Shown here one piece after another: positions 17,475 through 55,710 of a stretch of DNA of 64,000 nt; the stretch's first letter is position 1, and every line of letters starts with the position of its first letter. The position numbers and the translations under genes were made by a program. Where the stretch lies: contig NC_069128.1 in the NCBI RefSeq assembly GCF_026914265.1, forward strand, positions 28,649,960-28,713,959, read 5' to 3'. The notes under the pieces were generated by a model. The model was not told where the DNA came from. It did no database searches and worked only from the letters and a program-made list of their open reading frames with translations. Source of the DNA: Mya arenaria (taxonomy: Eukaryota > Mollusca > Bivalvia > Myida > Myidae).

Positions 17475-17482
17475 ATGCCGAG
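17475..17482 (+). CDS. CWC22: exon 1: start codon exon (8 coding nt)
   Basis: ATGCCGAG|GTATGT; phase 2 fits exon 2 exactly, giving Met-Pro-Arg-Arg-Arg-His. G at -3 of the ATG. Chosen over in-frame ATGs at 23717 because those lie inside the pyrimidine-rich stretch before the exon 2 acceptor. Intron 1 is then 6.27 kb. Confidence 0.65.
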
Positions 17483-23400: not shown

Positions 23401-26400
23401 CATCAATGTGATGAGTCAGATTATTGCCATTTCCTTGGTGTCTACATAGTTGTGCAAATATTTTGGTTTAACTGTGAAACGTTCTTTAAATTGTATTGAA
23501 ACTTGGCACATCCCTGTCAGAGTAATTATGTTTAGCATGTTAAACATGTTAAGCAAATAATGTATCTCTGCCATATTATTGAGTGAGAAATTAGTGCAAA
23601 AACAAAACCTTTTTTCGACCCCAGCAATACTTTAAATGAAATGATATGCACATGTTTTATTTATTGTACACACTTCATGACCTTGTTTACAAATAATTCT
23701 CCATTAAAATTATGAAATGATGATGGTAACAATTTTTGTCTTACTTTGTAGAAGAAGGCATGACTCATCTTCAGATGATTCTGATAGTAGCGATGATGAC
23801 CATCGTAGAAGAAAGCCTGAAAGAACTGGCAGAAAAAGGCATGACTCTCAGTCAGACTCCAGTGCTAGTGACGATGTCCCTGCAAAGTCTGTTGTGTCGA
23901 AGGTGGAACGAGGTAGAGAAAGAGAGGATGAGAACACAGGCATTAGATATATAGATCAGCGGGATAAAGGTGGAGATAGGAATGGAAGAAATCGAGGCGC
24001 AAGTACAGGGAGGCGAGACAGGCAGGGAGATGATAGACAGAGGAGAAATTCCCCGCCTCCTCCAAGAGATCCGCCTCCTCCAAGAGATGAAGGTGGTCTT
24101 GTCGTTCGAGATGAGAGGACATATCCTGTAAGAGGTAGAAATAGCAGGCAGGGTCGGCAGAATGCTCTGTCTCCAAGAAAACGAGGCAATGGGAATTCCA
24201 ACAGGCAGGGGTACAGGAGTGATAATCAGGACAGATCGAGTGATGATAGAGGAGGGAATAGGGATAGGGATGGGAGGGGCCAGAGACAGTTAGGATCAAG
24301 GTCGCCTGAAAGGGCAGCCAAAAGAAGTGACCTTGACAGATCTGAAGGTCGAAGGCGAAGAGCTTCAATGTCCCCTAAACGGAGTGAATCATATCAGGAT
24401 AGGGATCTTAGTAGGTCTAGAAACTCGGGTGACGACAGGCGGGGTGATTTAGTTGACAGAAGCGGAAGTAGGAAAAAGCGAGATGCTGACCTTTCAAGGT
24501 CAAGATCACCAGAGTCCACTGGTAAGAGGTCACATACTCGAAGTGAAAAGCGTGGCTCACACTCAAATTCTCCTGAGAATAATGTCTCAAGAAAATCTCG
24601 ATCGAAGCATTCAAAAGAGTCAGATCGACGAAGTCAGTTGTCATTGGAAAAGGAACTTCGTGATGAAGACCCGATGGCTAATGAAGTAAGACCTCCATCG
24701 AAGAAGAAGGGTAAAAAGAAGAGTAAAAAGACTGAGGAAGAGGATTTGGAGAGTAGTTTTGAAAGAAGTAAGAAATTTCTTTGTGAACATTCCAGTGAGT
24801 TTGATATTCCTGAGCCAGAGACGATGGACATTCTTAGTCCAACAACAGAGTTGCCAAAGAAATCAAAGAAAGATAAACGACAGCATGAGACATCAGAATC
24901 AGAGGATGAAACCCCCAAGAAAAAGTCAAAAGAGGGTAAAAAGAAGGGGAAGAAGAAATCAAAGAAGGAAGTTCGGGATTCCTCCGCGTCTCCCAGCCCT
25001 GAGCGAGTCAGTTCTAAGAAATCAAAGAAGTCAAAGCAAAAGTCATATTCCAGATCTCCTAGTCCACTTGACAGGTTAGTTGGTAGTAAGGTTTAAAAAA
25101 ACAACTTATGCTTTGGGTTACCTGACCCCGCCTTCAAAGAAATGTATGTGTTAACTGTTTTAATATTATGTGTGTGTTTTTTTAATGCTTTATACTAAAG
25201 ATAAATAAGTTTAATGATAATATATGTGGGTTTTTTTAATTACTTACACATAATAAATATTATAGAAGGGTTTTTCAAAAACTTGAACCTCCAGTATGGA
25301 AGCAACAAACAGAATTTTCGCCACTGAGATCTAGCCTTGTCTCGGTAACTTTGTGGGATACATATTTTGATTTGTCAAATACTTAAAATCATTCCATTTT
25401 CCCCTTTTCCAGATCTGGTAGATCAGATCCCAACAGATCTCGTTCCTCTGATGTCTCAGTGGGTCGTAAACACGACCTGGCTCAGTTTGAGAGCGAGCCA
25501 GAAAGCGGGGAACTAACAGACAGTGATGAAGAGGCAAGACAAGGAGAGGGATGGGAAGCTACTCTAAGGAGCACAGTCAAAGTAAGTAAATGCATAATTT
25601 ATGAGGGTAATTTATCAGGCTCTTGGTAAAGAAAACAAGTTTAACTTGACAAATATTTGTCCATGTTTCATCTTTAATGTATATGTTTACTTGTCCATCC
25701 ATCGCTGGTGTTTAAGTGTCCCTTATCTTCTTCTTATAATTTTCCTTCTTCTCACAGAAGCCAGAGGGCCAGAATCCGCTAGCTGGAATGGAGGACGAGA
25801 AATATCTGATGGCCAAACAAAAGGCAGAAAAGTTGTTGAGAGAAAAGCAGGATGCTGCAAAGAAAAATGACGACCGTCCAAGCAAGAGGTATGGGGTTGT
25901 TTTGCCTGTCCAAGCAAGAGGTATGGGGTTGTTTTGCCTGTCCAAGCAAGAGGAAATGGAGGGTGGGTTTTGCCTGTCCAAGCAAGAGGTATGGGGGTTG
26001 TTTTGCCTGTCCAAGCAAGAGGTATGGGGGTGGTTTTGCCTGTCCAAGCAAGAGGTATGGGGGTGGTTTTGCCTGTCCAAGCAAGAGGTATGGGGGTGGT
26101 TTTGCCTGTCCAAGCAAGAGGTATGGGGGTTGTTTTGCCTGTCCAAGCAAGAGGTATGGGGGTGGTTTTGCCTGTCCAAGCAAGAGGTATGGGGGTTGTT
26201 TTGCCTGTCCAAGCAAGAGGTATGGGGGTGGTTTTGCCTGTCCAAGCAAGAGGTATGGGGGTGGTTTTGCCTGTCCAAGCAAGAGGTATGGCGGTTGTTT
26301 TGCCTGTCCAAGCAAGAGGTATGGGGGTGGGTTTTGCCTGTCCAAGCAAGAGGTATGGGGGTGGTTTTGCCTGTCCAAGCAAGAGGTATGGGGGTTGTTT

Positions 26401-29400
26401 TGCCTGTCCAAGCAAGAGGTATGGGGGTGGGTTTTGCCTGTCCAAGCAAGAGGTATGGGGGTTGTTTTGCCTGTCCAAGCAAGAGGTATGGGGGTGGGTT
26501 TTGCCTGTCCAAGCAAGAGGTATGGCGGTTGTTTTGCCTGTCCAAGCAAGAGGTATGGGGGTGGGTTTTGCCTGTCCAAGCAAGAGGTATGGGGGTTGTT
26601 TTGCCTGTCCAAGCAAGAGGTATGGGGGTGGTTTTGCCTGTCCAAGCAAGAGGTATGGGGGTGGGTTTTGCCTGTCCAAGCAAGAGGTATGGGGGTGGTT
26701 TTGCCTGTCCAAGCAAGAGGTATGGGGTTGTTTTGCCTGTCCAAGCAAGAGGAAATGGGGGGTGGGTTTTGCCTGTCCAAGCAAGAGGTATGGGGGTGGT
26801 TTACCAAACTTTTAAAGTAGTTAGATATCCATGAGAGACTCCTGCCTCTGATCAGCAGGATTTGCCCATTCATGACTGGTTTGAAATTTCTAGAATTGCC
26901 ATACTTCAATGACTTACATATGTCTTATGATCTTGGTACAGAAAGTGACAAAATTAGGCACTCATGGGCCTCTTGTTTTTGTACATGTTCTTTTAAAAAC
27001 TAAATTTACCCTTTGAGGATGACATAAGAAAATGCATAAGATACTTTGTACTTGAAATTTTTGTAAGTTGGATAGAACACAATGGATGTCAAAGAAAAAT
27101 CTTTGTTAGTAATTATGTTGTACAGTTGTATCATTCTGTACTTACATGAAATTAATGCAGTTTTCATGAATTTTAGCATAAACTTATTGTCTCCTTCAGG
27201 AAAGCCACACCCACAAAGGACACAACATCAGAAGCAGCCCAGTCCCCAGCTCCCAAGAAGGCAAAGCCAGCTGATGGGGGAGCAGAAGCCTTTACAGGGA
27301 GAACGGGAGGAGCCTACATCCCCCCCGCCAGGCTACGTGCAATGCAGGCTAAAATTACCGACAAGTCTAGGTATGCAGTGATCCAAATTAGCACAAACCT
27401 GCAAGCCTGAATCAGCTAGGCTTCTAAAACATTTTTGGATTTGTAATATTTTTATACATTTGGGCTTGTTCAACAAATCATACATTTATATGAATATATA
27501 CAGTTTTTGGGCTTATTCATAAAACTCTCAATTTCGTGACTGGGTTATGTTGATGGAAAATTCTGTTATCATCATTAAATGGATTTTTTTTTAAATCAAA
27601 ATCCTAAGAGTTATGACCTAAATAGAGAGAAGGGCAGGGATTATATACCTTACCATCAGGTAGCGCACCATGCAGGCTAAGTTTACTGATCTATGCATGA
27701 GTTCAATAATCTGGCTTATGGTGGAGTAAAGAGGCCTTAACAAGGCAAATGGATGGGGCCTATTTACCCCAGGCTATGGACCTTGCAAGCTAAGAGAGTT
27801 GGTACACCTGTTCATTTTGGCATCTATACAGCAAGTCTCATTGCTCTGGAAAAAATTCTTTGAAATATCTGCATTAGTAAACTTATTAATTTGGACAAGC
27901 TGCGGAATGCCCTTGAAGTGCTCTTACTGTCACTGTGTCACCTGCAAAGCATGGAAGACACAATTTGGGCGACTGTGGCATCTGAGTCACACTTCAATAA
28001 CTTTAGAATGATTAGTTGAATGTTGAAACTTGGTATGCATATTAGTCATGGTCAGTGAATGACCCCTGTTGATTTTTGGGGTCACAGGTCAAGGTCAAGT
28101 GACCTTTTCACTTCTAACTGGCATCAATGTCTAATTCGCTGTATATTAATTTTATTTTAGGAAGTTTCACTTCATTTAATACCCTTCCATTTTTACAGTG
28201 TGGAGTTCCAGCGAATCTCGTGGGAGGCTCTGAAGAAATCTATCAACGGTCTGGTGAACAAAGTCAACGTGGGAAATATCGAGAATATCGTACGGGAGCT
28301 GTTCCAGGAAAACATCGTCAGGGGAAGGTAGAGTTATACCTTAACCTAGCAATAATTGATGAAAGACATAAGACAGCAGTGTTTCTTATTTACTTACAAT
28401 AGGCCTCAAATTCGACCCAATTCACTATCCCAATAAGTATATTTCTTTCAAATCCCACCAGTAACGATACTTTTTTCATGAAAGACTTGTTAAGAGATGA
28501 GAGATTTCTTTTATTTTTTGTCTCAACTCTTACCAAGTCAACTAGTACTGTTATGTTTAAATGCATCCCTAATAACTTAGAATTTTTCAAGTTCTGTATC
28601 ATATAAAGTGCCTTTGCTTTGTTTCCTTGTTTGAAATATTCTATCGTAAATCCACAATTTACTAAGGGACCTGGCCCCACTCACAATAAGGTGGGGAAAA
28701 CACTGGGAAAGAAAAGGTTTTAGCAGCTTTTAAAGTGATATACACTTTCAATATAGTTAGGTTATAGAACAGTGTGTCAATTTTAAATTAAAATATATTG
28801 TAGCATGTAAATCGTTTCTTTACACCAAAAGAGAGAAAAATGAAACATACACAATAACACATTTTGAAACCATATCATTATTTTTTTCCAGAGGTCTAAT
28901 GGCGCGATCTATTATCCAAGCCCAGGCTGCATCTGTGACATTTACACATGTGTATGCTGCTCTTGTGGCCATTGTAAACACCAAGGTAATGTACTGTGCA
29001 ATTTCTTAGAGGTAAGAGCACCTTAAAATCATTACAACAACTGTTAGTGCCTGGGTCTTGGTTAAAGATTTTGTGATAGTTCGAGTGCAAAAGAATTAGT
29101 CACTTCTTAAGTGTCAGAGAAATTCAATTGATGCTTATCAAAAATGATTAAAAAATTCTTACTGTTCATCTTATAATTATTTACAATTCTTGTACATAAT
29201 AATTGTATACTCTTGTTTGTCCTGTTTCATAGCATAAAAAACAGAGAGCTGGCCCCAATATCACGAAAAAACTTAAGTCAACTCTCAATTTCAGTCTCAA
29301 TTCATTTTACCACATTGCATCAAAAATTATTAAAAATATCATATAATTTTACACCTTTGAAAAGGTATTCTATCATATAATATGTTGATTTACACCTTCG

Positions 29401-32400
29401 GTCTAGATTCCAAAGGAGTAATATTCTTCAGCCAAAATTGTATTCGAGTACAATTTCATGTTTTTTAACAATTCCTCAAGCATATCTTTTGCTCTGGAAT
29501 TAAGTTTCTTCTTTCTATCAACAAATTGTATGAGAAAACTGTTTTCATAAAGTATAAAACAATGCAAGATTTTGAATAATACTATACTAAATTGTGGAAA
29601 AATGAGTTGAGATTGAGATTCGACTTGAGTATTTTTGTGATTTTGGGACCTAGTGTTTAAACATCTGGTCTTCCAAATCTTGCAAAGATACAATTGAAAG
29701 TCATCAATCTCTGCTGTCTGCCTAGTTGTATTGCCACGTTGAATAAACATTTTTTCCACAGTTTTCCCAGAATGGAGAGCTGGTATTGAAACTTCTGATC
29801 TTCCAACAACTTATCTTCCAAATCTTGCAACGATACAGATGAAAATAATCAATCTCTGCTGTCTGCGTCATTGTACTAACGTGTTTAATAAACATTTTTT
29901 TTATCACAGTTTCCCCAGAATGGAGAGCTTGTGTTGAAACGTCTGATCGTCCAGTTCCGACGAGGCTACAAGAGGAATGACAAGAGCATCTGCCTCTCTG
30001 CTACACGCTTTATAGCTCACCTAGTCAACCAGCAAGTGGTAAGAATTATAGACTTACTTTTATTCGCAGCAAAATATAATGGTGTAAATTATCATTTTTG
30101 TAAATAAAGATTTTTAGTGTTATTGAAAGAATTACCATTTTCAAATGTACCTTGCATGTATTTTAAACATGAAATTAAATTTATTATTAATATCACTGAA
30201 ATATATGATTTGCAACTGTGTGTTTTGATTTAAATCTTGCTTTGTCTTTTCTTCAAAAGGTAAGTCAACTTCTGCATTGATATCATCTTAAAATGCAATT
30301 TAAACCAATTTAATACCTTTCTATTTGCATTTATATCTATATGTGTACATGTATGTCACATTGGTTTATTCTTGATTCTTTGAGAATAAATAAAAAAAGA
30401 TTACTTTGAACAATTTATAAGCACAACCGCTGTGAATATTCCAAAGGGGACAAGGCCATATGGGGGATTGTACAGTAGATAACTCTTTTTAAGTTAACAA
30501 TGTTTTTAACATCATCGTTGTAGTTAACTTTCAAGTCCATACTGCTCTTAAAATAACATCAGCGTCAAATTTATGCCTTGAAACAATGCTCAAATATTTT
30601 GTGCTTATTGGCCTGCTATATTCCTCTAGGCCCATGAAGTTCTCGCCCTGGAAGTTCTAACGTTGCTACTGGATACGCCCACAGACGATTCGGTCGAGGT
30701 CGCCGTCGGATTTCTCAAGGAATGCGGACAGAAGCTTACCGAAGTCTCACCAAGGGGAATCAATGGTATTTTAAGAGTAAATCGGCCTAACTCAATGATT
30801 TGCCCACTTGTGGGTAGATGTGCTTGAGTTTTGTTGATTTTATTTCAGTGTCTTGTGAAAGTTGTAAGTCGTGAGGTCTCTAAAAAGATTTCTTGTCGGC
30901 TGGCTGGCTGGCCCTGGATCCATTCGCTAGCTGGCTGGCTGGCTGAAATTGAGGATAGCCAGAGTGATCTACCACTGGTTTGGACTACAAGAAAATCAAC
31001 ACAATTTCTGGCATGGACCCGAATGCCAGGATTTAACCATTCTTGCAAGAGTGGTTTCAACACATCAGGAAAGGATTACCTGTGTTGGCCTCTCCTGCCA
31101 AGGAAAGGTTTTCCAAATGTGAAGTGAAACCCTTTTAGAGTTGGCTTGTATTAGTATGGGCTAGCTGGAGTCTGCTGGAAGATGGAGGGCACGGCCCGCC
31201 CAGAAGATTTAGGGCACGGCCCGCCCCGGAATGCTGCGCATTACGCTTGGGTGTTCCCCATCTGAAAAGGCAACAACGGGAAAATGAGGGCTAACCTGCA
31301 TTATATGCAGGCTTTCCTCTCGTTTTCTGGGAAGGTGAAAACCATTCAGTAGAAGTAAGTTGCATCTTCGAGGGCACGGCCCGCCCAAATGGTGGTTTAC
31401 AAGGTGTTCGGGTGCTTCTAAGACTCCTTAAACCTGTTAACCTACAGGCTTTGGGGGTGAAATTTACCACCAGAACCTGGTGCCTTTCCTTATGGGAGAT
31501 CCAGATATCTTCCAGGAACATCTTGGATATCTCCAGTGCAGTATTTGGACCCTATGTGTTTTCTACTAGTGAAGCACTCAAAAATAGTGTTGTTGGACTC
31601 ATAGAGGACATTTCCCGAGTCTAGCTTAGGCAAGCTGATATTCTCCACTTTTGGGAAAGGTTGAAAGACTGGTTGGTTGGCTGGACGGGTCAACCAGTCA
31701 AGTTTCGTCCCCCTATTTAACCCAAGGACACTGGTCATACCCTTGACCAGTATTCAGCCTACCATGGTCCCTTGAGCGGACCGAACTCTCGATAAGTAAA
31801 ATGCAGACATATTTGATTATGACCTTGGTAAGTATTGTTTCAAAGGAGTGTTACTTTTTTCAACAGAATTTTGCATTTCTGTGTTTTTTTATCTCCTTGT
31901 TTTATAAAGCATGTTTCATTATATGACAGGTACTGGGTTTGTTTATATACATGTTGTGTCAGTCTTTTTATGCCAACACGATTGTTTTGATTATGGTTGG
32001 CTTGTTTAGAAACATATTAAAAACTCAATACGCAGAAGTTCAGTTTTATTCAGTAATAACAGCAAATGCAAAATAGTTTTACTACAAGATCAGCATTCTA
32101 AATTCACAGAACTATTTACAATTTTGACCCATCAGTTTTACCAATCTTTACAACACTGCATAAATATTATATATATGAGAGTTTTCTGCCTGACTTTTTT
32201 TTATCAAAAGTTAAAAAACAGAAGTGGAAGCAAACAGTTTCAATTATTAACGTTATATGTACTTCTTATGCATTTATAAAAGTTGTGCTAACTTGTTGAC
32301 TGATAGAATTAATGATTTGGAGGTGTTCCGATCATTAACAATGTGTTATTTGTCCTCTTGCAGCAATCTTCGAACGACTGAGAAACGTTTTACACGAGGG

Positions 32401-47400: not shown

Positions 47401-50400
47401 TATACCCCCGACAAACAAAGTTTGAAGGGGGTATATTGGAGTCACCCTGTGGTCGGTCGGTCGGTCGGTTTGTCGGACGGTTTGTTGCAATTTACCATGT
47501 ACGGAGCATAACTTAAAAACTACTGGATGGAATTGGATTAAACTTCATACAATGGTAGAGCATAATGAGAGGAAGTGCAGTGTACAATAAGCATAACTTT
47601 ATTCTTGCTTATTACTGAGTTAATGCCCTTTGTTAATTTTTTTTTTTTGTCCGGAGTATAACTTGAAAATTACTGGATATAATTCATTGGAACTTCATAC
47701 AATGGTAAAGCACAATGAGAGGAAGTGCAGCGCACAAGAACCATAACTCTATTTTAGCTAATTACAGAGTTATGGCCTTAAATTAATTTTTACTTGTCCC
47801 GAGCATAACTTGAAAACTATTAGATAAATAAATCTTCATACAGTGATAGATCATAATGAGAGGAAGTGCAGTGTACAGGAACCACAATTTTATTTCAGCT
47901 AATTACAGAGGTACTGCCCTTTGTTACTTTTTCTTGTCCGGAGCATAACTTGAAAACTATTGGATGGAATTTAATAAAACTTTATACAGTGATATATCAT
48001 AATGAGAGGAAGTGCAGTGTACATGAACCACAATTCTATTTCAGCTAATTACAAAGTTATTGCCCTTTGTTACTTTGTTACAATCGGAAATTGTACAAAA
48101 CAAAAATAACCCTTATCCGTAACATTTTATGTGTTTTCCTTTCTAAATATGTTTATATAAACCATTAATTTTAACCTACTGGTATAAAAAAAGTAACTTA
48201 ACTCATTTATAGATGGCTGTGGTATATTCTGTTCTTTAGAACATCAAATATATCAGTATTAACATCTCAGTATTAGCATCACTGATATTGTTTAAAGCCT
48301 TTTTTCTAACTTTTAAAAACATGATAAAAAAATGAATAACTGAGGATAGTCCATAAAATAAAGTTGTCATTTATAGGTTGGCTTTCCAAATAGTTGACTG
48401 CAATTTCATATCAGGGCGGCGTAAACAGATGCCTATTATGTATCTTAACCACCACCTCACCCTACATTCAGTTTTATTAAAGAAAGTTGAATACCTAATA
48501 ATAAGAAAGGTAGAAAAAACATTATTGCAAATTTACAAATAGAATGCAATAGATAAAAATGAATACATAGCATAAACAAAAAACACCTAAAATGAGTCCA
48601 CACAACTACATGTACATGTTTAAGTTCAATGTTTAAAGTATTCCGTCATTTTCGTTTGCGCCACTTCTGTCTCTAATATAAAGTGCATTTACATTGATCC
48701 GACATAATCATGCCAAGCATGTAACTCTGTGAGTCAAAACCCATGAATACACAAGTTCAATGAGTTTCTCAATTTTCCTCTGTCTTTTAGTGTTTGGATT
48801 TGAATTGCAAGAAATTAATTTGAGTCCGTCCACAGTTCTTCTTGCAGTACGACTGTTTTCTAATAATTTAATACACGATAGGTTATTTTAGCGTCAAACA
48901 CTTCCGATTTGATTTATTGCCAGCCATAATCAAGATTCAAAAGAATATCACAATCAATGCAATGTAAATATCTGTTCGTAGAAGTATAAAGCCGTGCACT
49001 TTGAAAAATTAATACGGAAGTGAATACATATCGTAACCCGTTTCACACCATCAGATAACAGTGCAAACTGTAAATTCATAATTATTATAACCGGCCTTCT
49101 TTGTCGGTATTTAACAATAAACTTGGTAAACTTCGTAATTATTTACGCCAATTATTCAACTATCTTTACTAAGTGTGTCAATTCTGATCGAAGCATTCGC
49201 CGACGTGTTATAAACATGATTTCTCGATAAGCAAACACACATGGTAATCGTGTTATGTTATATGCATTTCCATTGGACGACGGAAATATCCGAGGCTGTC
49301 GTTCTTTTCTGTCAATTTCAGTATCAAATAAAGCTGTGTATTGGCAAAATCACTTGCGGAAGTGTCAGTGACAAAGGATTAGTGACCGCTAATTAGTGCT
49401 TTTATGGCTTCACGGGGACAAATATTAGTGGCCGTGGCCGCGTTAGACAGTTGGCCGCTTAATGCACGTACTTTATATAGTAAAAACGTACAGGGGGGAA
49501 TTCGGAGTGGCCTGATAAGGCAGGTGGCCATTTAAAGCAGGTGACCGTTCAACCAGGTTTGACTGTATGACTATATGTCACCAAGTTTTTTCACTTAGTT
49601 GCAAAATTATTTGATATTTATATTGACTTTTGCAGCGTTTTTGCTTGAAAGACAAGAAGTATGTTACACTATCCCAAGCCAAGTTCTGGGAGCAATTTAA
49701 GTTTTTAAGTTATTTGCAACATATTTCAATATTTCTATATATTTATTTTTTTTAGCATTTCTGCCTGATGGACATGAAATAGGTAACATTCAAAGCCTTG
49801 TTCCGGGAGCATGAATTCTTTACCTAAAAGCTTATTAAACTGGTAAACCGTCACCAAGTTTTTAGTTATTTGCAACATAGTTTAATTTTCTTTATATTTT
49901 TTAGCGCTTCTGCATGATAGACAAGAAGTATGTAACGCCATTCCAAGCCATGTTCCGGGAACAGTATGAAACCATTCATCGTCTTGAGACGAATAAGTTG
50001 AGAAATGTGGCCAAGTTTTTTGCTCATTTGCTTCATACCGACTCCATCTCTTGGGCTGTAAGTATTTGTTTTTATATAACAGTTTGTTTACATGTATTAA
50101 AAAACAATTAAATAAATGAAAGGCATATGTCTTGCGATTTTGAATAATAAAAAACGGTTTTAGCCATATTGATGTACTGGTGTCAAAAACCTTTGTCAAA
50201 TCGATTTTATGTTTTTTCTCTTAATTAATATATATATGAAGTATATAGTTTATGAAAAGTCCAATTTCACAAAAAAGATAGGAATAATATGTTTTTGGAT
50301 AGAAAATAGCCTCACGGTTGTAGAATTGCATAGTTAATCAGAGCTTCATAAAAGGTTTAGCAACAAAGGTTATTTAAATCCCATTTTTTCTCTAGGGAGT

Positions 50401-53400
50401 ATGTAATGCTAAGATTATGTTATACTCTGATTTTGTTTCCAAAATAGTATGGTATGCTTGATTTTGTTCCATAATAATATAGTACGCTCTTATTTTGTTC
50501 CCAAAAAGTATAGTATGCTCTTATTTTGTTCCCAAAAAGTATAGTACGCTCTTATTTTGTTCCCAAAAAGTATGGTATGCTCTTATTTTGTTCCCAAAAA
50601 GTATGGTATGCTCTTATTTTGTTCCCAAAAAGTATAGTACGCTCTTATTTTGTTCCCAAAAAGTATGGTATGCTCTTATTTTGTTCCCAAAAAGTATGGT
50701 ATGCTCTTATTTTGTTCCCAAAAAGTATAGTACGCTCTTATTTTGTTCCCAAAAAGTATGGTATGCTCTTATTTTGTTCCCAAAAAGTATGGTACCCTCT
50801 TATTTTGTTCCCAAAAAGTATGGTACGCTCTTAATTTGTTTCCAAAAAGTATGGTGTGCTCTTATTTTGTTCCCAAAAAGTATAGTACGCTCTTATTTTG
50901 AACCCAAATAGTAGGGTACGCTCTTATTTTGTTCCCAAATAGTATGGTACGCTCTTGTTTTGTTCTCAAATATTTGTTGATTTGCATTCCATACATTTAC
51001 AAGGACGTTTTGACTAAAGCCAATTCATTTTCAAAATTCATTTTGATTTTAATGCATATTCATAAATTGCTCATCTTATCTGGCGCTCTGGTTAATCATG
51101 CAACAAAATATGCACTTAGTTTCAAAAGCTATATCAAGGATGTGATATGTCCCTGGATTTCCCCCAATCTAATGGCTTCAGTGACCAATATTTTTTAACT
51201 ATTTGACTTTGGTTGTCTCTTTGTTTGTTGTAAGTACAACACCATTTTACTTCCAATGAAGTCATGAGAGCCCTCAAATGGATATTTTTTGTTTAAAGCA
51301 AGCTGCAGCATGGTGTATAATACCCGTTGACCTTCACCAGAGGGCCTAAAGCACCGCCCAAACACATCGCCATAATGATTCTAGCATTTCAGCTGCCTGG
51401 TCAATCATATCACTGTATACATTGTATCACGTCGGCATTTTATTTTTATTTCCCTACCCAGGTGTTGGAGTGTATGAAGCTGAATGAAGATGACACAACA
51501 TCGGCTAGTCGAATCTTCATCAAGATTCTGTTTCAAGAGCTCTCAGAATACTTGGGACTGCCAAAACTCAACGACAGACTTAAAGATCCGTAAGTTGAAA
51601 TATTTAATGTTGTATCTTTTATATGCAGCATAAGCCTGTTATATACCGGGGCATTCATTTTTCTTGATTATCAGACAGATAACTTCAATGAACAATAAAA
51701 AACCCATCCAAAATAGTAAATATTTCAAAAAATTTAGAAGATCAAAAATACTGAGCTTATTTTAATTGTGTTATAACAGACTCCAGTAGTTTCGAGAAAT
51801 TGGCCCTGTCAACAACTTATCAAGGGTTTATACAATTAAGTGCAATGAGTGGAGGAGTCTGCTTGCAGTGCCACTATTACAGCTCTGACATAATCTAGGT
51901 TAAGGCCAAAAAAACCAAAACATTTGGTTTAAGTTACCAGACCCTACCTTCATAATATGTGCTGACACTACCGCTTTTATAGTCAGTTGGTAAAAAAATA
52001 GAAAGAAAAAAACAGAAAAAAATAATTTATATATTTTTTAATGTGTGTGTGTTGATATGTAGTTTAAAACCTTCAAAGCTTTATATTGAAGATTACTTTA
52101 ACACGATGCTCCAATGATTGCAAAAACGTTCTTAAATAAACCCTAATAAAGAGATAAAATGAAAAGCTTACCTACCATGTCTGTTTTTGAATGGAATGTA
52201 ACCCTAACCAAACCATTTATTTTTTGGCTGAACAATTTATCACAGTGATCTTCCAATTTCTCTCTGTTGGAGCACAACACTGGTCTCATGCTGGGCGTCA
52301 ACCAATGAGACAAGTGGTTAGATTATAAAATATTGTATATATCCTCGACTGTTAAATTCACCAACAAATCAATGTGTTCAAATTCTTCAGGACCCTGTTG
52401 GAGTACTACGCTGGTCTCATGCCGAGAGACAACCCCCGGGACACGAGATTTGCCATCAATTTCTTCACTACAATTGGACTGGGTGGACTGACGTAAGTAA
52501 AACATTGTTCGTGTTTAGATATATGCATGCTCAGACAATGGCATCATCAGAGATCAAGATGGCCACCAAGGGACTGTTATATCAGAAACATTTCTTACTA
52601 GAGAGATTTTTAACAGTGAAGAAGTGTAAATATTGGACCATTCTAGCACTTAGAAACATCTAAAATGCCATTGTTTTATTCATTCAATTGAATTCAATTC
52701 GTTCAAGCTCTGAGTAGCATTTTGACCTGCCAATGTTTCAATTCATAAATTTCATTTTGGATTTTTGTGTATTTATCAGTGATGACTTGCGTGACCACCT
52801 AAAGAACGTCTCTATGAAGCTAATGGCACAGAAGCAGGAACAGCAGGCAGCGGCAGCTATAGCAGTTGACTCCTCAGACAGTTCTGACTCGGAATCAAAT
52901 GATTCTAGCTCCAGTGGATCTGATAGCAGCGACTCTGACAGCTCTTCGGGTAACTATTTAATAGGGATGCAAACGAATGGCAAAATTGATATTCGAATAT
53001 TCGGTAATTCTTTCGATCGAATATTCGATTACCAAAATACATATTTTAGAAGATGTAGTAAAATTCTATTACTATTCGCTAAAGTAATAACCGGGGCATT
53101 TATACCCTACTATGTCGTAGCAAGTACGCGCGGCGGACCCTTATTTCCCCAAATGAGTCTTTGAAATTCTCCATTTTCAGGAAGAAAAAAGCAATACATT
53201 ATGAACAAACAACAGAATCAAATAATTTCAATTCCGCTGCCTTTATATTTGTAAACAATGTGAACTTACATGGATTTCTAGTAAAAAAGCGTTTTGAGCC
53301 AATGGAGGGTCGTTCCGTAGGACGAGCAGCCTCGTTCTGAGATTGAGCTCTAAATTGACTACTTTTAACTACGGAAAACCCAAACCCACTATGGAACAAG

Positions 53401-55710
53401 TAATATAATAAAACGAAAACATGTGGATTTGACTCATCTATTGTACAACAATATAGGAAAAATATCCTAAAACGCTATACTATACAGTTATATTTCAAAG
53501 CATTAACACTTAATAAAAACATGGAAAACAGTTTAAAGCACATACATGTTACTATGTTATTGTAGCTTATGTTATTCATAACATCAAAGTGATTTGTGCC
53601 ATGTTGCACAGCTTAATTTGCAGCAAGACAACACATTTGTGTTAAAGCCGATTCCTACCTAGTTATTGTAAAATTAAGGGGACTTTTTATAGTACCCAAC
53701 TATATGTCCCTAAATGTCATATGACGCGTATTTAGTGTATTGTAATCACATTCACACCTCTGGCATTAGTGGCCAGTCGTAAAAACAAGACAAACAAACT
53801 TTATAAAGAACAAAAGTATTGTATGCAAAATGTTTTTTATTCTCTTTATTGCACTTTTTTCGAATATTCAAATACCGATTTTGACCAAACGTTTGATCGA
53901 ATTCGAATATTCATTTGCATCCCTACTATTTAATCATCTTTGAGAAACTTGCTTGATCATTTATACCTCACTTGACTTCATAACATAACCTATAGTCTTC
54001 ATTAGTTGTTAGGTAAAGTCTCACGTTACAATTTTTAATACTATAGTCTTCATTAGTTGTTAGGTAAAGTCTCATGTTACAATTTTTAATACTATAGTCT
54101 TCATTAGTTGTTAGGTAAGGTCTCACGTTACAATTTTTAATACTTCCCACGCATGCTGCCAAAAAATAGATTCTTGCTTTCTGAAGCACCTGGGCACAAT
54201 AGGTGCTTACAAAATATTGTTTAAAATTCTTGTGAATAGATACAAAAAAAGAAATTTTAAAATTTCAAACCGGAATCACTTTAGTTGGTATGATCTGATT
54301 GACTCCTGTCAAATCAAACACCACAATTGCAGACATAACTGATGCAAACAATATTTGTAAGAGTAAATAAAATAAATATCGGATGCCATGGAGGGTGATA
54401 GAATACATTGTGAACCCTAAAAATGATTATATCATCCAAGGTGTTAGGTTCATCCCCTTTGAACTCAAAAGGGGGTCTTAAGTGCCCCTAAACCAACGCT
54501 GAACTAGATTCAGCCCTTCAGCTGGGAGGTGAATCACATTCCTGTACGATTGTTGCAATGACTGTTATAACTCTTTTCAGATTCAGATTCATCTGAAGAC
54601 GACAGAAGAAAAAAGAAAAAGCAGAAAGAAAATGCAAGGAAGGATAAGGGGAGAAAAGGCGTAGAAATGAAAAGGGCCGACAATAAAGCAGATAGAAAAA
54701 ACAGGGACAAAGCAAATGGTAAACATGGTAATGTGATGATGGACGGGGGGCGAAAAGGGGGGAAAAGTAAGGGGAAACAGAGGGTTAACTCTGAGGAAGT
54801 AATTCAGAGAGAACGTGAAGACAAGTTTAGGAAACTTGCTAAGCTAGCTAACTATGGCGATATTGAGAGTATAAGGCCTCATGCGGATGATGGTGCAAAG
54901 TTGAAGAAAAGTGGGAAAGAGAAAAGGGATAAGAAAAAGTTAAGGAAAGATAAAAACGATGTTAGAGATGCGTTTGATGATGATGTTGGTCTTGATGTCG
55001 ATTTTGGGAGGGAGAAGGTTCGTGGTAAAAAAGACAAGATAAGAGGGGAAAGAAACTTGGACAATTCAAGAGGAAGTGAGAAGGAATTAGGTTTTGTGGA
55101 AAAGAGGGCCAAGAGGCAAAGTAGTGTAGATAGCAAGGATGATTTTGATGCACGCAACTATGCTAATGATGTACCGAGAGACGATAGAAGAAGAAACAGG
55201 CCTCCGAAGTACAGGGATGAGCGGGATGGTGGCGGTTTAAGCAGTGGGAGGGAAGGAAGGGGATTTAGCAGCGGGGGAAGCGGGAGAGAGGATCGTGGTG
55301 CTGGCAGGGAGAAACGCCGTGGGAAAAAACAGCGGGAGATCGACCCAGTGGAATTGGAACGGGAAGAGGCCATAAGAGTTGAAAGGACATTTGAGAGACT
55401 GGATATGTATGAGGATAAGTTTGAAAGAGAGAGACAGAGGAATCTGGATATACTCCGACATCGGGATGAATTTCAGGATTTTTTCAGTGGGAGAGAAGAG
55501 GATTTGCCTCCAAGTGGTCGTTATGGCGGTCGGGAGAGAGATGGACGGGATTATCGGGGTGGGAAGGGGGATATGGGCGACAGATATGATAGTAGGGCTC
55601 CGCCAACTATTCCTCCCCCTCTGTTGGATGATAGGGGAAGGGGCCCCAGAGGAGAAAGGGGCGAAGACAGGGGCCTTGTTGTGAAAGATGAGCGGAGAAG
55701 GAGGAGGTAG
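17475..55710 (+). CDS. CWC22: pre-mRNA-splicing factor CWC22 homologue (20 coding exons)
   Basis: CWC22 (nucampholin in flies) is a nuclear spliceosome component that binds eIF4A3 and is needed to load the exon junction complex. Joining 20 exons with canonical GT-AG borders and matching phases gives 1,520 residues; human CWC22 has about 908. Layout: RS/D-rich low-complexity N-terminus (1 to about 575), [13 protein letters not shown] linker, MIF4G (about 601-800) with the NK pair at 621-622 in INGLVNKVN that contacts eIF4A3 in the family, acidic linker (about 855-890), MA3 (about 893-1010), conserved LPRDNP-like [16 protein letters not shown] block, Ser/Asp tract, and a lysine/arginine-rich tail. 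The extra length is almost all N- and C-terminal charged sequence. Six junctions are tandemly duplicated into the adjacent introns. A polyadenylation signal AATAAA lies at 55859. Confidence 0.9.
17625..17695. repeat. third copy of the hairpin-loop sequence
   Basis: AGTCCACCTAAATGGTCGTC then GAGTCTTTTGACGATTTTTA and GGCAGACTCGTGACGTCCAC match the reverse complement of 18510-18580, the centre of the large inverted repeat. Confidence 0.75.
18098..18142. repeat. (ATC)n microsatellite
   Basis: ATC trinucleotides with one short interruption (GAA). Confidence 0.9.
18310..18790. repeat. large inverted repeat, about 200-bp arms, 61-bp loop
   Basis: Arms about 18310-18516 and 18578-18790 pair through GCTACTTTTTGCTGGGATGG, TGCGCAAGG / TTTGCGCAG, ACATAAATAAATGTG and CATGTAAGTG with scattered mismatches. 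The loop contains an inner ACCAGTCT / AGACTGGT stem. It is inside intron 1 and so would be transcribed. Confidence 0.9.
19432..21189. mobile_element. non-autonomous DNA transposon, copy 2 (14-bp TIR, 6-bp TSD) with nested insert
   Basis: Perfect TIR CATACATGTGATAA and TTATCACATGTATG, flanked by GGTATC on both sides (19426-19431, 21190-21195). Matches copy 1 at 965-1801. It contains a nested element (19923-20464) and about 370-390 bp near 20675-21065 that copy 1 lacks, so copy 1 is probably internally deleted. Confidence 0.9.
19923..20464. mobile_element. nested MITE, 16-bp perfect TIR, 6-bp TSD
   Basis: Left end CAGTCTGCGAAATAAC; right end is its exact reverse complement. Flanked by CATTCC (19917-19922 and 20465-20470). 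The pre-insertion site can be read in copy 1 near 1450. Inside, ACTTGCCCG recurs several times near both ends, in palindromic clusters such as CTTGCCCGATCGGGCAAG. Confidence 0.93.
21834..22986. mobile_element. non-autonomous DNA transposon, CAGGG end, 5-bp TSD
   Basis: TIR CAGGGTTTCCGCCAG perfect over 15 bp and imperfect to about 37 bp; flanks ATTAT (21829-21833 and 22987-22991). 1,153 bp, no transposase; subterminal GCATGTCGG and GACACGCCTT repeats. Inserted in intron 1 of CWC22. Confidence 0.88.
23752..25074 (+). CDS. CWC22: exon 2: long RS/RD-rich N-terminal exon
   Basis: Begins after CTTTGTAG and ends ACAG|GTTAGT in phase 2. It encodes about 441 residues dominated by Arg, Ser, Asp and Lys, with [15 protein letters not shown] RS blocks and [10 protein letters not shown] basic runs. 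No folded domain; typical of splicing-factor RS tails, but here at the N-terminus. Confidence 0.85.
25096..25150. mobile_element. fragment of MITE family B
   Basis: GGGTTACCTGACCCCGCCTT corresponds to the TTACCNGACCCTACCTTC segment of the three fuller copies. Terminal repeats are missing. Confidence 0.45.
25413..25581 (+). CDS. CWC22: exon 3
   Basis: TTTTCCAG acceptor; codes [13 protein letters not shown], then acidic [15 protein letters not shown]; donor AAA|GTAAGT, phase 0. Completes the split AGA codon from exon 2. Confidence 0.85.
25758..25888 (+). CDS. CWC22: exon 4 (its 3' end seeds the intron 4 minisatellite)
   Basis: CTCACAG acceptor; codes a charged helix-like stretch ([19 protein letters not shown]) ending RPSKR. 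Donor AAGAG|GTATGG, phase 2. The last 13 nt plus the donor recur in every unit of the following array. Confidence 0.85.
25889..26800 (+). repeat. minisatellite of about 27 units, 32-34 bp, each carrying the exon 4 end and 5' splice site
   Basis: The core GTCCAAGCAAGAG, identical to the last 13 nt of exon 4, occurs 28 times in a row (once in the exon, 27 times downstream). In 26 of the 28 it is followed by GTATGG as at the true donor; two variants (near 25953 and 26752) read GAAATGG instead. Units are mostly 33 bp and contain no stop in any of the six frames. Reading on from exon 4 in frame stays open to 26834. Confidence 0.97.
27200..27370 (+). CDS. CWC22: exon 5: [11 protein letters not shown] linker
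   Basis: TCCTTCAG acceptor, phase 2; codes [18 protein letters not shown], then [18 protein letters not shown], the conserved segment before MIF4G; donor TCTAG|GTATGC. Confidence 0.93.
28199..28327 (+). CDS. CWC22: exon 6: start of MIF4G
   Basis: [18 protein letters not shown] then [27 protein letters not shown] acceptor and AAG|GTAGAG donor, phase 2. Contains the NK pair used for eIF4A3 binding in the family. Confidence 0.95.
28892..28985 (+). CDS. CWC22: exon 7: MIF4G
   Basis: [20 protein letters not shown] then [20 protein letters not shown] acceptor, AAG|GTAATG donor, phase 0. Confidence 0.95.
29700..29909 (+). repeat. intronic duplicate of the exon 8 acceptor region
   Basis: A unit of about 146 bp is repeated: ATCAATCTCTGCTGTCTGC at 29704 and at 29850, each followed by AATAAACATTTTTT, a pyrimidine tract and an AG. 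The upstream copy (AG at 29761) leads into CCCAGAATGGAGAGCTGGTA, a near-copy of exon 8, then diverges and hits a stop after about 26 codons. A still more decayed copy precedes it near 29655. Confidence 0.9.
29910..30038 (+). CDS. CWC22: exon 8: MIF4G
   Basis: [20 protein letters not shown] then [28 protein letters not shown] acceptor, GTG|GTAAGA donor, phase 0 both ends. Confidence 0.95.
30630..30765 (+). CDS. CWC22: exon 9: MIF4G
   Basis: [20 protein letters not shown] then [27 protein letters not shown] acceptor, AATG|GTATTT donor, phase 1. Confidence 0.95.
30850..31800. other. intron 9 repeat-rich stretch
   Basis: Contains GGCTGGCTGGCTGGC tracts near 30900 and 30940, a 14-bp GC-rich motif GGGCACGGCCCGCC three times (31187, 31212, 31372) and a CCTGCATTATATGCAGG palindrome near 31296. 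Several short open frames on both strands look spurious. Possibly remains of an unrecognised element. Confidence 0.5.
32364..32467 (+). CDS. CWC22: exon 10: MIF4G
   Basis: [20 protein letters not shown] then [21 protein letters not shown] acceptor, AAG|GTACGT donor, phase 0. Confidence 0.95.
33519..33621 (+). CDS. CWC22: exon 11: end of MIF4G
   Basis: [20 protein letters not shown] then [21 protein letters not shown] acceptor, CTCA|GTATGT donor, phase 1. Followed by the 10.7-kb intron 11. Confidence 0.95.
36106..36200 (-). mobile_element. SINE fragment (reverse orientation)
   Basis: Reverse complement of part of the element at 46436-46640: CACTCTCGTTGGCACGAT, then GCGAGAGTGTGGTCTTGTG and GGGGAAACCGGAGTACCC. 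Truncated, lacks the tRNA-like head. Confidence 0.7.
36360..42530 (+). repeat. intron 11 mega-array: 27-bp units, 54-bp higher-order units, then 23-bp units
   Basis: Degenerate units from 36360, interrupted by unique sequence at about 36890-37390. From 37395 a 27-bp unit (CTGTCTTTGCTCTAACTGG core) is tandem; from about 38020 to 41400 two diverged 27-mers alternate as a 54-bp unit (CTGACTATCTGTCTGTATGT and CTGGCCTTCCATCTTTC types); from about 41570 to 42170 the unit becomes 23 bp (CTCTTACTGGCTTTCTGTCT). Because 54 is divisible by three, one frame stays open for 856 codons (38381-40951), repeating [10 protein letters not shown] read this as a by-product, not a gene. Confidence 0.95.
43346..43540. 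mobile_element. MITE family B copy (GGCC-A-tract TIR)
   Basis: Starts GGCCTAAAAAGAATAAATTT, then GGTTTGAGTTACCCAACCCT, and ends CCCTAACCAAACCATTTTT. Same family as 51904-52228 and 56366-56688. Confidence 0.65.
44360..44422 (+). CDS. CWC22: exon 12
   Basis: [20 protein letters not shown], matching the conserved segment after MIF4G; TTTACAG acceptor, AAAG|GTATGT donor, phase 1. Confidence 0.95.
45093..45185 (+). CDS. CWC22: exon 13: acidic linker
   Basis: [20 protein letters not shown] then [18 protein letters not shown] acceptor, GAAG|GTGAGC donor, phase 1. The Glu/Asp/Ser content matches the linker of other CWC22 proteins. Confidence 0.93.
45186..45420 (+). repeat. three intronic copies of the exon 13 end with its donor, 76-bp period
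   Basis: Donor AGGAAG|GTGAGCTAT recurs with exon-like sequence before it at 45261, 45337 and 45413, each exactly 76 bp apart. A unit is 52 nt of exon 13 plus 24 nt of intron. Reading through from exon 13 reaches a stop at 45236, so use of any downstream donor would truncate the protein. Confidence 0.95.
46023..46171 (+). CDS. CWC22: exon 14: start of MA3
   Basis: [20 protein letters not shown] then [27 protein letters not shown] acceptor, GAG|GTGAGT donor, phase 0. Confidence 0.95.
46172..46396 (+). repeat. intronic copies of the exon 14 end with its donor, 80-bp period
   Basis: GACAAGAG|GTGAGTTAG recurs at 46251 and 46331, exactly 80 bp apart, with CTCCTGAAGATGGAACTCAG before it as in the exon. 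A fourth, shortened copy (to 46396) has lost the GT (AAGAGTTGAG). In frame, GTG AGT TAG stops immediately, so downstream donors cannot give full-length protein. Confidence 0.95.
46436..46680 (+). mobile_element. tRNA-derived SINE
   Basis: The head looks tRNA-like: A-box-like AACGCAGTGGTTAGCGCT and B-box-like GGATTCGATTCC 36 bp apart. The body has GGGTACTCTGGTTTTCCCC and ACCACACTCTCGCGCAAC, shared with the fragment at 36106-36200. Confidence 0.75.
47002..47079 (+). CDS. CWC22: exon 15: MA3
   Basis: [20 protein letters not shown] then YGLLAG; TTTCACCAG acceptor, GGG|GTAAGT donor, phase 0. The CCAQ-RTYEKF block is strongly conserved. Confidence 0.95.
47403..48075. mobile_element. element with GGGGGTATA end and about 150-bp internal tandem repeats
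   Basis: Left part has ATACCCCCGACAAACAAAGT, then GAAGGGGGTATATTGGAG and a GGTC tetranucleotide run. Then four units of about 150 bp each contain GGAGCATAACTTGAAAAC and CATAATGAGAGGAAGTGCAG. Non-coding; non-autonomous element of unknown family, in intron 15. Confidence 0.7.
49380..49572. mobile_element. probable terminal part of a DNA element
   Basis: Repeated GTGGCC / GTGACCG motifs and a right end AACCAGGTTTGACTGTAT. The opposite end was not found, so extent is uncertain. Confidence 0.35.
49600..49904 (+). repeat. two decayed intronic copies of the exon 16 acceptor and exon start
   Basis: CAAGTTTTT, then TAGTTGCAAA or TTATTTGCAACATA, a pyrimidine tract, AG, and then exon-like sequence appear three times: AG at 49635, 49755 and the true one at 49904. 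The copies keep TGAAAGACAAGAAGTATG and CTGATGGACATGAAATAGG like the real CATGATAGACAAGAAGTATG. Both decoys have lost the reading frame. Confidence 0.93.
49905..50057 (+). CDS. CWC22: exon 16: MA3
   Basis: [20 protein letters not shown] then [20 protein letters not shown] acceptor, GCT|GTAAGT donor, phase 0. Confidence 0.96.
50437..50972. repeat. minisatellite, 31-bp unit, about 17 copies
   Basis: Unit GCTCTTATTTTGTTCCCAAA plus AAGTATGGTAT (or AAGTATAGTAC). Starts about 380 bp after exon 16. Open in several frames because it lacks stops; no sign of coding use. Confidence 0.95.
51462..51589 (+). CDS. CWC22: exon 17
   Basis: [20 protein letters not shown] then [28 protein letters not shown] acceptor, GATCC|GTAAGT donor, phase 2. 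Confidence 0.96.
51904..52228. mobile_element. MITE family B copy
   Basis: Left end GGCCAAAAAAACCAAAACAT then GGTTTAAGTTACCAGACCCT; right end TAACCCTAACCAAACCATTT then ATTTTTTGGCT. The ends are imperfect inverted repeats of about 30 bp. Confidence 0.75.
52255..52320 (+). repeat. decayed intronic copy of the exon 18 start
   Basis: CTGTTGGAGCACAACACTGG followed by TCTCATGC and GTCAACC parallels exon 18 (CTGTTGGAGTACTACGCTGG, TCTCATGCCGAGAGACAACC). It lacks an AG at the boundary. 128 bp upstream of the real exon. Confidence 0.85.
52391..52492 (+). CDS. CWC22: exon 18: [16 protein letters not shown] block
   Basis: [20 protein letters not shown] then [22 protein letters not shown] acceptor, GAC|GTAAGT donor, phase 2. 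Confidence 0.96.
52780..52949 (+). CDS. CWC22: exon 19
   Basis: [20 protein letters not shown] closes the conserved region, then a Ser/Asp tract ([17 protein letters not shown]). TTATCAG acceptor, TCGG|GTAACT donor, phase 1. Confidence 0.93.
52962..53925. mobile_element. non-autonomous hAT element with 8-bp TSD
   Basis: TIRs TAGGGATGCAAACGAATG and CATTTGCATCCCTA, flanked by a perfect 8-bp duplication CTATTTAA (52954-52961 and 53926-53933). 8-bp duplication and the TAGGGATGC end are hAT features. Subterminal CGAATATTCG motifs. No transposase. Lies only 12 bp after exon 19's donor. Confidence 0.9.
53990..54142. repeat. 51-bp tandem repeat, three copies
   Basis: TATAGTCTTCATTAGTTGTT then AGGTAAAGTCTCACGTTACA and TTTTTAATAC, three times in intron 19. 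Confidence 0.95.
54581..55710 (+). CDS. CWC22: exon 20: charged C-terminal tail and stop
   Basis: CTTTTCAG acceptor, phase 1; [18 protein letters not shown] onward is Lys/Arg/Asp/Gly-rich with one [20 protein letters not shown] helix-like stretch, ending KDERRRRR and TAG. About 375 residues, longer than the human tail. Confidence 0.92.

What the first reader, a model, noticed from the sequence alone, without database searches (positions are those of the whole stretch)
25400..55710. One splicing-factor gene with six exon-intron junctions tandemly duplicated into the neighbouring introns
In the CWC22 homologue, the ends of exons 4, 13 and 14 with their 5' splice sites, and the beginnings of exons 8, 16 and 18, are copied into the adjacent intron in direct tandem orientation, with different periods (33, 76, 80, about 146, 120-149 and 128 bp). 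Six of 19 introns is far more than I would expect from chance. Seen directly: the copies. Known: CWC22 acts in the spliceosome and loads the exon junction complex; in mouse, Cwc22 lies in a copy-number-variable meiotic-drive responder locus. Inferred: either the locus is unusually prone to short tandem duplication at splice junctions, or decoy sites are tolerated or used, for example to autoregulate CWC22 by unproductive splicing.
Basis: partly seen in the sequence, partly recalled or inferred. Interest (0 to 1): 0.88.

Follow-up and report, generated by a model that had tools for sequence, protein, structure and literature searches.

The report
Splice junctions duplicated within clam gene
In a clam gene for a splicing factor, pieces of exon edges with their splice sites have been repeated in tandem into the neighbouring introns; this is real and unusually dense here, but the same kind of repeat turns up in other genes of the same genome, so it looks more like a side effect of a repeat-prone genome than a regulatory device.

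Summary
[quoted passage not shown] inference). All six tandem copies of exon edges exist, and I found a seventh, decayed one (end of exon 5). All are direct and lie in the adjacent intron; six of ten tandem arrays in the gene straddle a junction (0.8 expected). Three arrays carry 30 extra donors identical to the authentic ones, 25 beside exon 4. A second, mostly 96-99.7% identical copy of the gene 593 kb away has the old duplications but other copy numbers in the young ones: 12 versus 28 units at exon 4, one versus three donors at exon 14. Most likely this is a neutral, genome-wide process of short tandem duplication, tolerated because the exon-attached splice site still works; CWC22 lies in its upper tail. 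Autoregulation has no positive evidence, but the exon-4 array is a good natural test of donor choice.

The parts
17475..17482 (+). putative exon 1 of CWC22 (ATGCCGAG), joined in frame to exon 2
   Evidence: the MPR start agrees with the Mercenaria, Mactra, Dreissena and two unionid proteins aligned; no transcript evidence
23752..55710 (+). CWC22 homologue, exons 2-20 with introns
   Evidence: phmmer E 2.8e-269 to human CWC22; MIF4G, MA3
25758..25888 (+). exon 4; its last 13 nt and donor are the first unit of the 33-bp array
25876..26802 (+). 33-bp array: 28 motif copies, 26 with the same donor 9-mer (1 authentic, 25 decoys), 2 with the GT lost
27200..27370 (+). exon 5, whose end has two decayed copies in intron 5 (seventh case)
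27617..27689 (+). decayed copy of the exon 5 end (66% identity)
   Evidence: E 0.004
27714..27793 (+). second decayed copy of the exon 5 end (67% identity)
   Evidence: E 2.6e-5
29910..30038 (+). exon 8, source of an acceptor duplication
29660..29805 (+). copy of the intron 7 end, acceptor and first 44 nt of exon 8, 145-148 bp upstream
45131..45427 (+). 76-bp array x3.9: last 55 nt of exon 13 plus donor; three decoy donors identical to the authentic one
46096..46377 (+). 80-bp array x3.4: end of exon 14 plus donor; two intact decoy donors, last copy truncated
49577..49694 (+). copy 1 of the intron 15 end, acceptor and start of exon 16 (77% identity)
49759..49879 (+). copy 2 of the exon 16 start (67% identity); the exon's own frame meets a stop after 8 codons
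   Evidence: frame read by eye
49905..50057 (+). exon 16
52264..52319 (+). decayed copy of the exon 18 start (75% identity, 131 bp upstream), no acceptor AG found at the aligned place
52391..52492 (+). exon 18
37406..42284 (+). intron-only 54-bp and 23-bp minisatellites of intron 11 (background arrays)
47498..48068 (+). intron-only 150-bp array, intron 15
50425..50970 (+). intron-only 31-bp array, intron 16
53990..54144 (+). intron-only 51-bp array, intron 19; the match to the second gene copy breaks off here

Best explanation
Short tandem duplications (tens to about 150 bp) arise often in this clam genome and some then expand and contract as minisatellites. When a unit happens to cross an exon-intron junction, the gene survives because the exon-attached splice site still joins the exons (for donor copies the first donor, for acceptor copies the last acceptor). 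The other copies are then intron, keep their splice signals for a while and decay without visible constraint. The seven cases in CWC22 are separate events of different ages, from the young exon-4 array to the old exon 5, 16 and 18 copies. CWC22 has more of them than the control genes, either by chance in a gene picked for it or because the region is repeat-prone. Shown: the copies, their differing divergence, the copy-number difference between two gene copies, similar events in other genes. Inferred: neutrality, and that the decoys are seldom used.
For: Direct, adjacent, same-strand copies only. The gene also holds intron-only arrays (7,644 of 31,960 bp of the gene lie in the seven array stretches summed). 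Copy numbers differ between the window and the second copy of the gene: exon 4 27.8 v 11.8 units, exon 13 3.9 v 4.9 units, exon 14 three donors v one, while the old copies at exons 8 and 16 are found in both and the stretches holding the exon 5 and 18 copies align throughout at 99%. Controls of the same genome: 5 of 74 exons have decayed edge copies, including a myosin exon with three further exon-end-plus-donor copies about 150 bp apart (L088) and PRPF8 (L047). In the old copies exon-derived and intron-derived halves differ alike, 26 of 159 v 29 of 179 sites (exon 8 copy, exon 16 copies 1 and 2); in the young exon 13 and 14 copies 12 of 126 v 0 of 27. So the exon-derived part is not held back. 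Use of the decoys would mostly truncate the protein.
Against: CWC22 is denser than the controls: 6 of 19 v 5 of 74 exons, P 0.008; 7 of 38 v 5 of 148 junctions, P 0.003; copies with score 26 or more 6 of 19 v 2 of 74, P 0.0008; against myosin alone 4 of 54, P 0.016, against the rest 1 of 20, P 0.039. Junction arrays exceed random placement inside the gene. A plain neutral process does not by itself predict an excess at junctions, beyond easier recognition and longer retention of exon copies. Thirty decoy donors keep the authentic 9-mer.
Confidence: 0.72

Rival explanations
1. The decoys are used: the exon-4, 13 and 14 donor arrays and the exon 8 and 16 acceptor copies draw splicing into unproductive forms, and CWC22, which links splicing to the exon junction complex that marks such mRNAs for decay, thereby limits its own amount.
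For: 21 of 25 GT decoys of exon 4, 3 of 3 of exon 13 and 2 of 2 of exon 14 would end the reading frame early; the decoy donors have the authentic 9-mer, and the acceptor copies of exons 8 and 16 keep an AG (scores 1.0, 12.1, 6.0). Many RNA-binding proteins regulate themselves by unproductive splicing (start of the abstract of PMC6547761, listing).
Against: No transcript data. Such copies occur in myosins and PRPF8. Copy number is not kept between the two copies of the gene, exon 14 having no intact decoy donor in the second. Early stops are what random decoys mostly give. None of the 15 papers listed (of 911) is, by title and start of abstract, about CWC22 regulating itself.
Confidence: 0.1
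2. Junctions, or this gene, are real hot spots of tandem duplication (for instance transcription- or R-loop-linked breaks at G-rich donors), so that the excess is mutational.
For: 6 of 10 arrays at junctions against 0.8 expected; P 0.003 to 0.01 against control junctions; units of the exon 4, 13 and 14 arrays each carry AGGT.
Against: Post hoc choice of gene; exon copies are recognised and kept more easily, and a tenfold bias alone would explain the excess. The acceptor-side cases do not share the donor context.
Confidence: 0.15
3. Assembly artefact.
For: Minisatellites are error-prone in assemblies, and this assembly holds what look like unmerged haplotypes.
Against: The second copy shows arrays at the ends of exons 4 and 13, a truncated copy at exon 14 and the copies at exons 8 and 16, with its own copy numbers; decayed copies cannot come from misassembly; the published M. 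arenaria assembly, if this is it, was built from PacBio reads (passages of PMC10663159).
Confidence: 0.03

Closest known systems
[quoted passage not shown] potato RdRp case, PMC4974935, passages read)
   Same: A short direct duplication carries AGGT or a whole intron-exon junction with its splicing signals; the paper also cites fission-yeast genes with multiple tandem copies of a 24-bp AGGT segment.
   Different: There a new intron arises. Here the duplications enlarge existing introns and no new intron is evident.
Minisatellites / VNTRs inside genes (recalled)
   Same: Head-to-tail units whose number differs between two copies of the gene.
   Different: The units include exon edge and splice site, so each intact repeat adds a donor.
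Tandem exon duplication with mutually exclusive exons (PMC9013439, PMC9741552, search listing only)
   Same: Exon sequence repeated in tandem inside a gene.
   Different: Whole functional exons there; here exon edges whose use would mostly end the frame. Two myosin controls (L074, L085) look like that known kind.
Unproductive-splicing autoregulation of splicing factors (start of abstract of PMC6547761, listing)
   Same: Decoy use would mostly give early stops.
   Different: No sign of use, conservation or regulation here.
Mouse R2d2 / Cwc22 copy-number drive locus (PMC4334553, passages read)
   Same: Same gene family; a second copy of most of the gene is present in this assembly.
   Different: There a 127-kb segment is amplified (about 33 copies in WSB/EiJ); the passages I saw say nothing of splice junctions.

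Membership tests
Junction-straddling minisatellite (VNTR) | head-to-tail direct copies of one unit | tested here: met
   for exons 4, 13 and 14; only one or two copies at exons 5, 8, 16 and 18
Junction-straddling minisatellite (VNTR) | copy number varies between alleles | tested here: inconclusive
   differs between the two assembled gene copies, which are alleles or recent duplicates; no population data
Intron gain by tandem duplication (Rogers model) | duplicated segment carries AGGT | tested here: met
   exon 4, 13 and 14 units
Intron gain by tandem duplication (Rogers model) | a new intron results | not tested
   would need intron positions in related species, which are not held
Mutually exclusive tandem exons | whole exon with both splice sites and an open frame is duplicated | tested here: not met
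   copies are exon edges; use of the exon 8 and 16 acceptor copies or of the exon 13 and 14 donors ends the frame (exon 16 copy 2 by eye)
Autoregulation by unproductive splicing | decoy use brings an early stop | tested here: met
   26 of 30 decoy donors; the other four (exon 4) stay in frame
Autoregulation by unproductive splicing | element conserved | tested here: not met
   exon 14 has two intact decoy donors in one gene copy, none in the other; other species not testable here
Autoregulation by unproductive splicing | regulated use of the decoys in mRNA | not testable with these tools
   no transcript data
CWC22 | MIF4G and MA3 domains and long similarity to CWC22 | tested here: met

The most novel reading that the evidence does not exclude
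The donor arrays act as a tunable brake: 25 extra full-strength donors next to exon 4, and several beside exons 13 and 14, compete for U1 and set how much CWC22 mRNA is productive, with array length (28 v 12 units between the two copies) as a heritable dosage dial on a core spliceosome and exon-junction-complex factor.
Probability: 0.08. Interest if true: 0.85.

Novelty: new variant of a known kind. Interest (0 to 1): 0.42.

Why it matters
If neutral, it shows a route by which introns fill with decoy splice sites, common enough here to be met in 5 of 74 control exons, and it offers a ready natural experiment: one exon followed by 25 identical donors, with a second copy of the gene carrying about 12 units. 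Which donor a spliceosome takes from such a ladder is a direct test of rules that I recall as studied mainly on artificial duplicated sites. If regulatory, it would be a repeat-length control of a core splicing factor.

Tried and rejected
Rejected: assembly artefact (see rivals). Unlikely: a dispersed element landing at junctions, because exon matches with E at or below 0.01 in the window occur only in the adjacent intron and on the same strand; the genome-wide look for the exon-4 unit did not complete. Dropped from the control hits: L037/L038 (the repeat lies in intron that the profile match overran), L087 (score 14, z 5.4, about 435 bp away, unclear), L076 upstream (19 nt, z 3.8); L074 and L085 are set apart as whole-exon duplicates. 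Counting L087 gives 6 of 74, P 0.014; counting L074 and L085 gives 7 of 74, P 0.023. TSP1 stretches of the window hit each other as domain repeats and are not counted. In one search the exon 16 copy 2 acceptor was set one base late; I rely on the sequence, where the exon's frame meets TAG after eight codons. In one search exon 13 of the second copy was set one base late and gave false stops; one search corrects it. One search placed the start of exon 2 wrongly; one search corrects it. The Rfam scan at gathering scores and the tRNA scan of the window found nothing. No protein named as Mya arenaria is among the 120 listed in each. One search found no paper for its terms; none of the 7 papers listed is, by title and start of abstract, about splice-donor minisatellites.

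Limits: 54 of 74 control exons are myosin; controls are defined by profile matches and not by exact exon ends, and some near copies under 93% identity may remain among them; the method cannot see a case like exon 4, where only 13 exon bases are shared. Hits were listed at z 4 or more and 3.5 or more.

Full report
What the gene is. The window is eukaryotic DNA. Joining GT-AG exons by reading gives a 20-exon gene with a 1520-residue open frame; exon 1 (8 nt at 17475) is the least certain. Its best solved relative is human CWC22 (E 2.8e-269 over residues 525-1184); Pfam finds MIF4G and MA3; over residues 540-1040 the nearest named bivalve proteins are those of Dreissena (88%, partial record), Mercenaria (85%) and Mactra (84%). 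The window lies at C7:28649960-28713959 of a genome of 1,216,080,610 bases in 18 contigs. A published Mya arenaria assembly is 1.22 Gb in 17 scaffolds (passages of PMC10663159), so I take the species to be the soft-shell clam; this is inference.

Are the six duplications there? Yes. Tandem Repeats Finder gives the 33-, 76- and 80-bp arrays at the ends of exons 4, 13 and 14; self-BLAST and local alignment give the copies upstream of exons 8, 16 and 18. Against 300 dinucleotide shuffles, exons 13, 14, 16, 8 and 18 stand 28.4, 27.5, 22.2, 19.5 and 17.6 SD above the mean; exon 4 stands at only 2.8 SD (5 of 300 shuffles reach it) because 13 exon bases are shared, and its case rests on the 28-fold array. 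A seventh case appeared in the same test: the end of exon 5 has two decayed copies in intron 5. BLAST of exons 2-20 against the noncoding DNA of the window, both strands, gives matches with E at or below 0.01 only on the same strand in the adjacent intron.

More than chance? Ten tandem arrays lie in the gene, nine printed by self-BLAST and the exon-4 array, and six straddle a junction. Placing units of these lengths at random, leaving out placements inside coding sequence or over two junctions, gives 0.81 expected; P(6 or more) is 2.5e-5. Exon copies are easier to see and are held on one side by selection; a bias of 2, 4 or 10 raises P to 7.7e-4, 0.014 and 0.20. Adding five short intron repeats that only TRF lists gives 6 of 15 and P 4.5e-5, 0.0014, 0.023 and 0.29. 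In a simpler count, 50 of 397 noncoding 60-mers outside the gene have a copy within the next 600 bp at a score of 15 or more, but these fall into only 10 clusters.

What the copies carry. The exon-4 array has 28 motif copies; 26 have the same donor 9-mer (one authentic, 25 decoys), two have lost the GT. Of the 25 decoys 21 would shift the frame and end the protein early and four would keep the frame; all three decoys of exon 13 and both of exon 14 end it early. The decoy 9-mers equal the authentic ones and so score the same on a matrix from this gene's 19 donors (10.9, 8.5, 10.9; the authentic sites left out of their own matrix score 10.0, 6.9, 9.9). The exon 8 copy and both exon 16 copies keep an acceptor AG (1.0, 12.1, 6.0); none was found for the exon 18 copy. 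Dreissena, Mercenaria and Mactra proteins run through the exon 4/5 junction (SKR-KA or NKR-KA) without insert, so the productive mRNA should use the first donor. In the old copies exon-derived and intron-derived parts have diverged alike (26 of 159 v 29 of 179 sites); in the young exon 13 and 14 copies the exon-derived part has diverged more (12 of 126 v 0 of 27). Neither shows the exon-derived part being preserved.

A second copy of the gene. A DNA search with part of exon 2 finds a 99% identical place 593 kb upstream. It matches the window from position 1 to 54040 in pieces with large indels, mostly at 94-99.7% identity with a few pieces at 83-92% outside the minisatellites, holds exons 1-19 with an open frame (four substitutions and a 3-residue insertion), lacks exon 20, for which a genome search gave only the window's own place, and breaks off in the 51-bp array of intron 19, where a 44-bp minisatellite of 437 copies begins. 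Similar pairs appear among the myosin genes, so I think it an unmerged haplotype; a recent duplication is not excluded. It confirms the arrays and shows them changing: exon 4 11.8 v 27.8 units, exon 13 4.9 v 3.9 units (three exact donors v four), exon 14 one donor v three, while the exon 8 and 16 copies are shared and the stretches with the exon 5 and 18 copies align throughout. It also has arrays of its own, for example 139 bp x8 in intron 12.

Controls in the same genome. I searched the genome with the profiles of the myosin head (99 matches), PROCN of PRPF8 (7) and chaperonins (84) and held DNA around 70 of 99, 7 of 7 and 8 of 84 matches. The 77 myosin and PRPF8 matches fall into 61 clusters at 93% identity; with 8 chaperonin exons and 5 hand-picked coding stretches of other genes in the window there are 74. 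Each was compared with up to 600 bp on either side. Decayed edge copies were found in 5 of 74: the muscle-type myosin group L021/L026/L030 (acceptor side, 108-117 bp), L025 (137 bp), PRPF8 L047 (129 bp), L076, and L088, where the end of a myosin exon with its donor is repeated three more times at about 150 bp (one of the three seen by eye). Chaperonin exons gave 0 of 8. L074 and L085 are whole-exon duplicates that look like alternative exons and are counted apart; other dropped rows are named under Tried and rejected. CWC22 by the same method gives 6 of 19 exons (exon 4 escapes it, exon 1 not tested). Fisher P: 0.008 by exon, 0.003 for 7 of 38 v 5 of 148 junctions (0.011 for 6 of 38, without the exon-4 array), 0.023 if the whole-exon duplicates are counted, 0.0008 for copies with score 26 or more; 0.016 against myosin alone and 0.039 against the other 20. 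So the phenomenon is not confined to CWC22, and CWC22 is several-fold denser than this small, myosin-heavy control.

Interpretation. The simplest account is recurrent short tandem duplication, tolerated at junctions because the exon-attached site still serves, followed by decay or by minisatellite growth. It explains direct orientation, adjacency, the range of ages, varying copy number and the presence in unrelated genes. It leaves open why CWC22 has so many; chance after selection by a reader who picks the most striking gene, or a repeat-prone region (7,644 of 31,960 bp of the gene in the arrays summed, against 2,448 of 32,040 outside), may suffice. Autoregulation remains possible but has no positive support here.

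Relation to what is known. Tandem duplication of AGGT segments or of junctions is an accepted route to new introns (PMC4974935, passages), and that paper cites fission-yeast genes with multiple tandem copies of a 24-bp AGGT segment. The present arrays use the same raw material without evident intron gain. Searches for splice-donor minisatellites and for CWC22 self-regulation (15 of 911 papers listed) showed no title or abstract start describing this; the library is partial.

Noticed in passing
G000:C7:28064452-28112102 (L004-L009): Second copy of the region including CWC22 exons 1-19, 593 kb upstream of the window's gene, without exon 20: unmerged haplotype or recent segmental duplication.
   Followed up: partly
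G000:C7:28112103-28131333 (L009-L011): 44-bp minisatellite of 437 copies (19 kb) directly after the break-off of the second CWC22 copy; possibly an assembly join.
   Followed up: no
L088, positions about 398-955: Myosin exon whose end with donor is repeated three more times at about 150 bp in the intron, the same pattern as CWC22 exons 13 and 14; the profile's listed match was one of the decoys.
   Followed up: partly
window:37406-42284: Nearly 5 kb of 54-bp and 23-bp minisatellite inside the 10.7-kb intron 11; the corresponding array of the second copy is about 3.2 kb.
   Followed up: no
window:12694-14471: Coding stretches with three thrombospondin type-1 repeats and a C1q-like domain (named from motifs by eye, recalled).
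   Followed up: no
window:57949-59044: 145-bp array x7 just downstream of CWC22; from recollection it resembles repeats common in bivalve genomes.
   Followed up: no
window:61577-63268, minus strand: 563-codon open frame on the minus strand downstream of CWC22, not examined.
   Followed up: no
proteins P0001 and P0122: Two plant records (Reevesia, Acacia) score among the highest in bits although only 59% identical; perhaps fused or repeated gene models.
   Followed up: no
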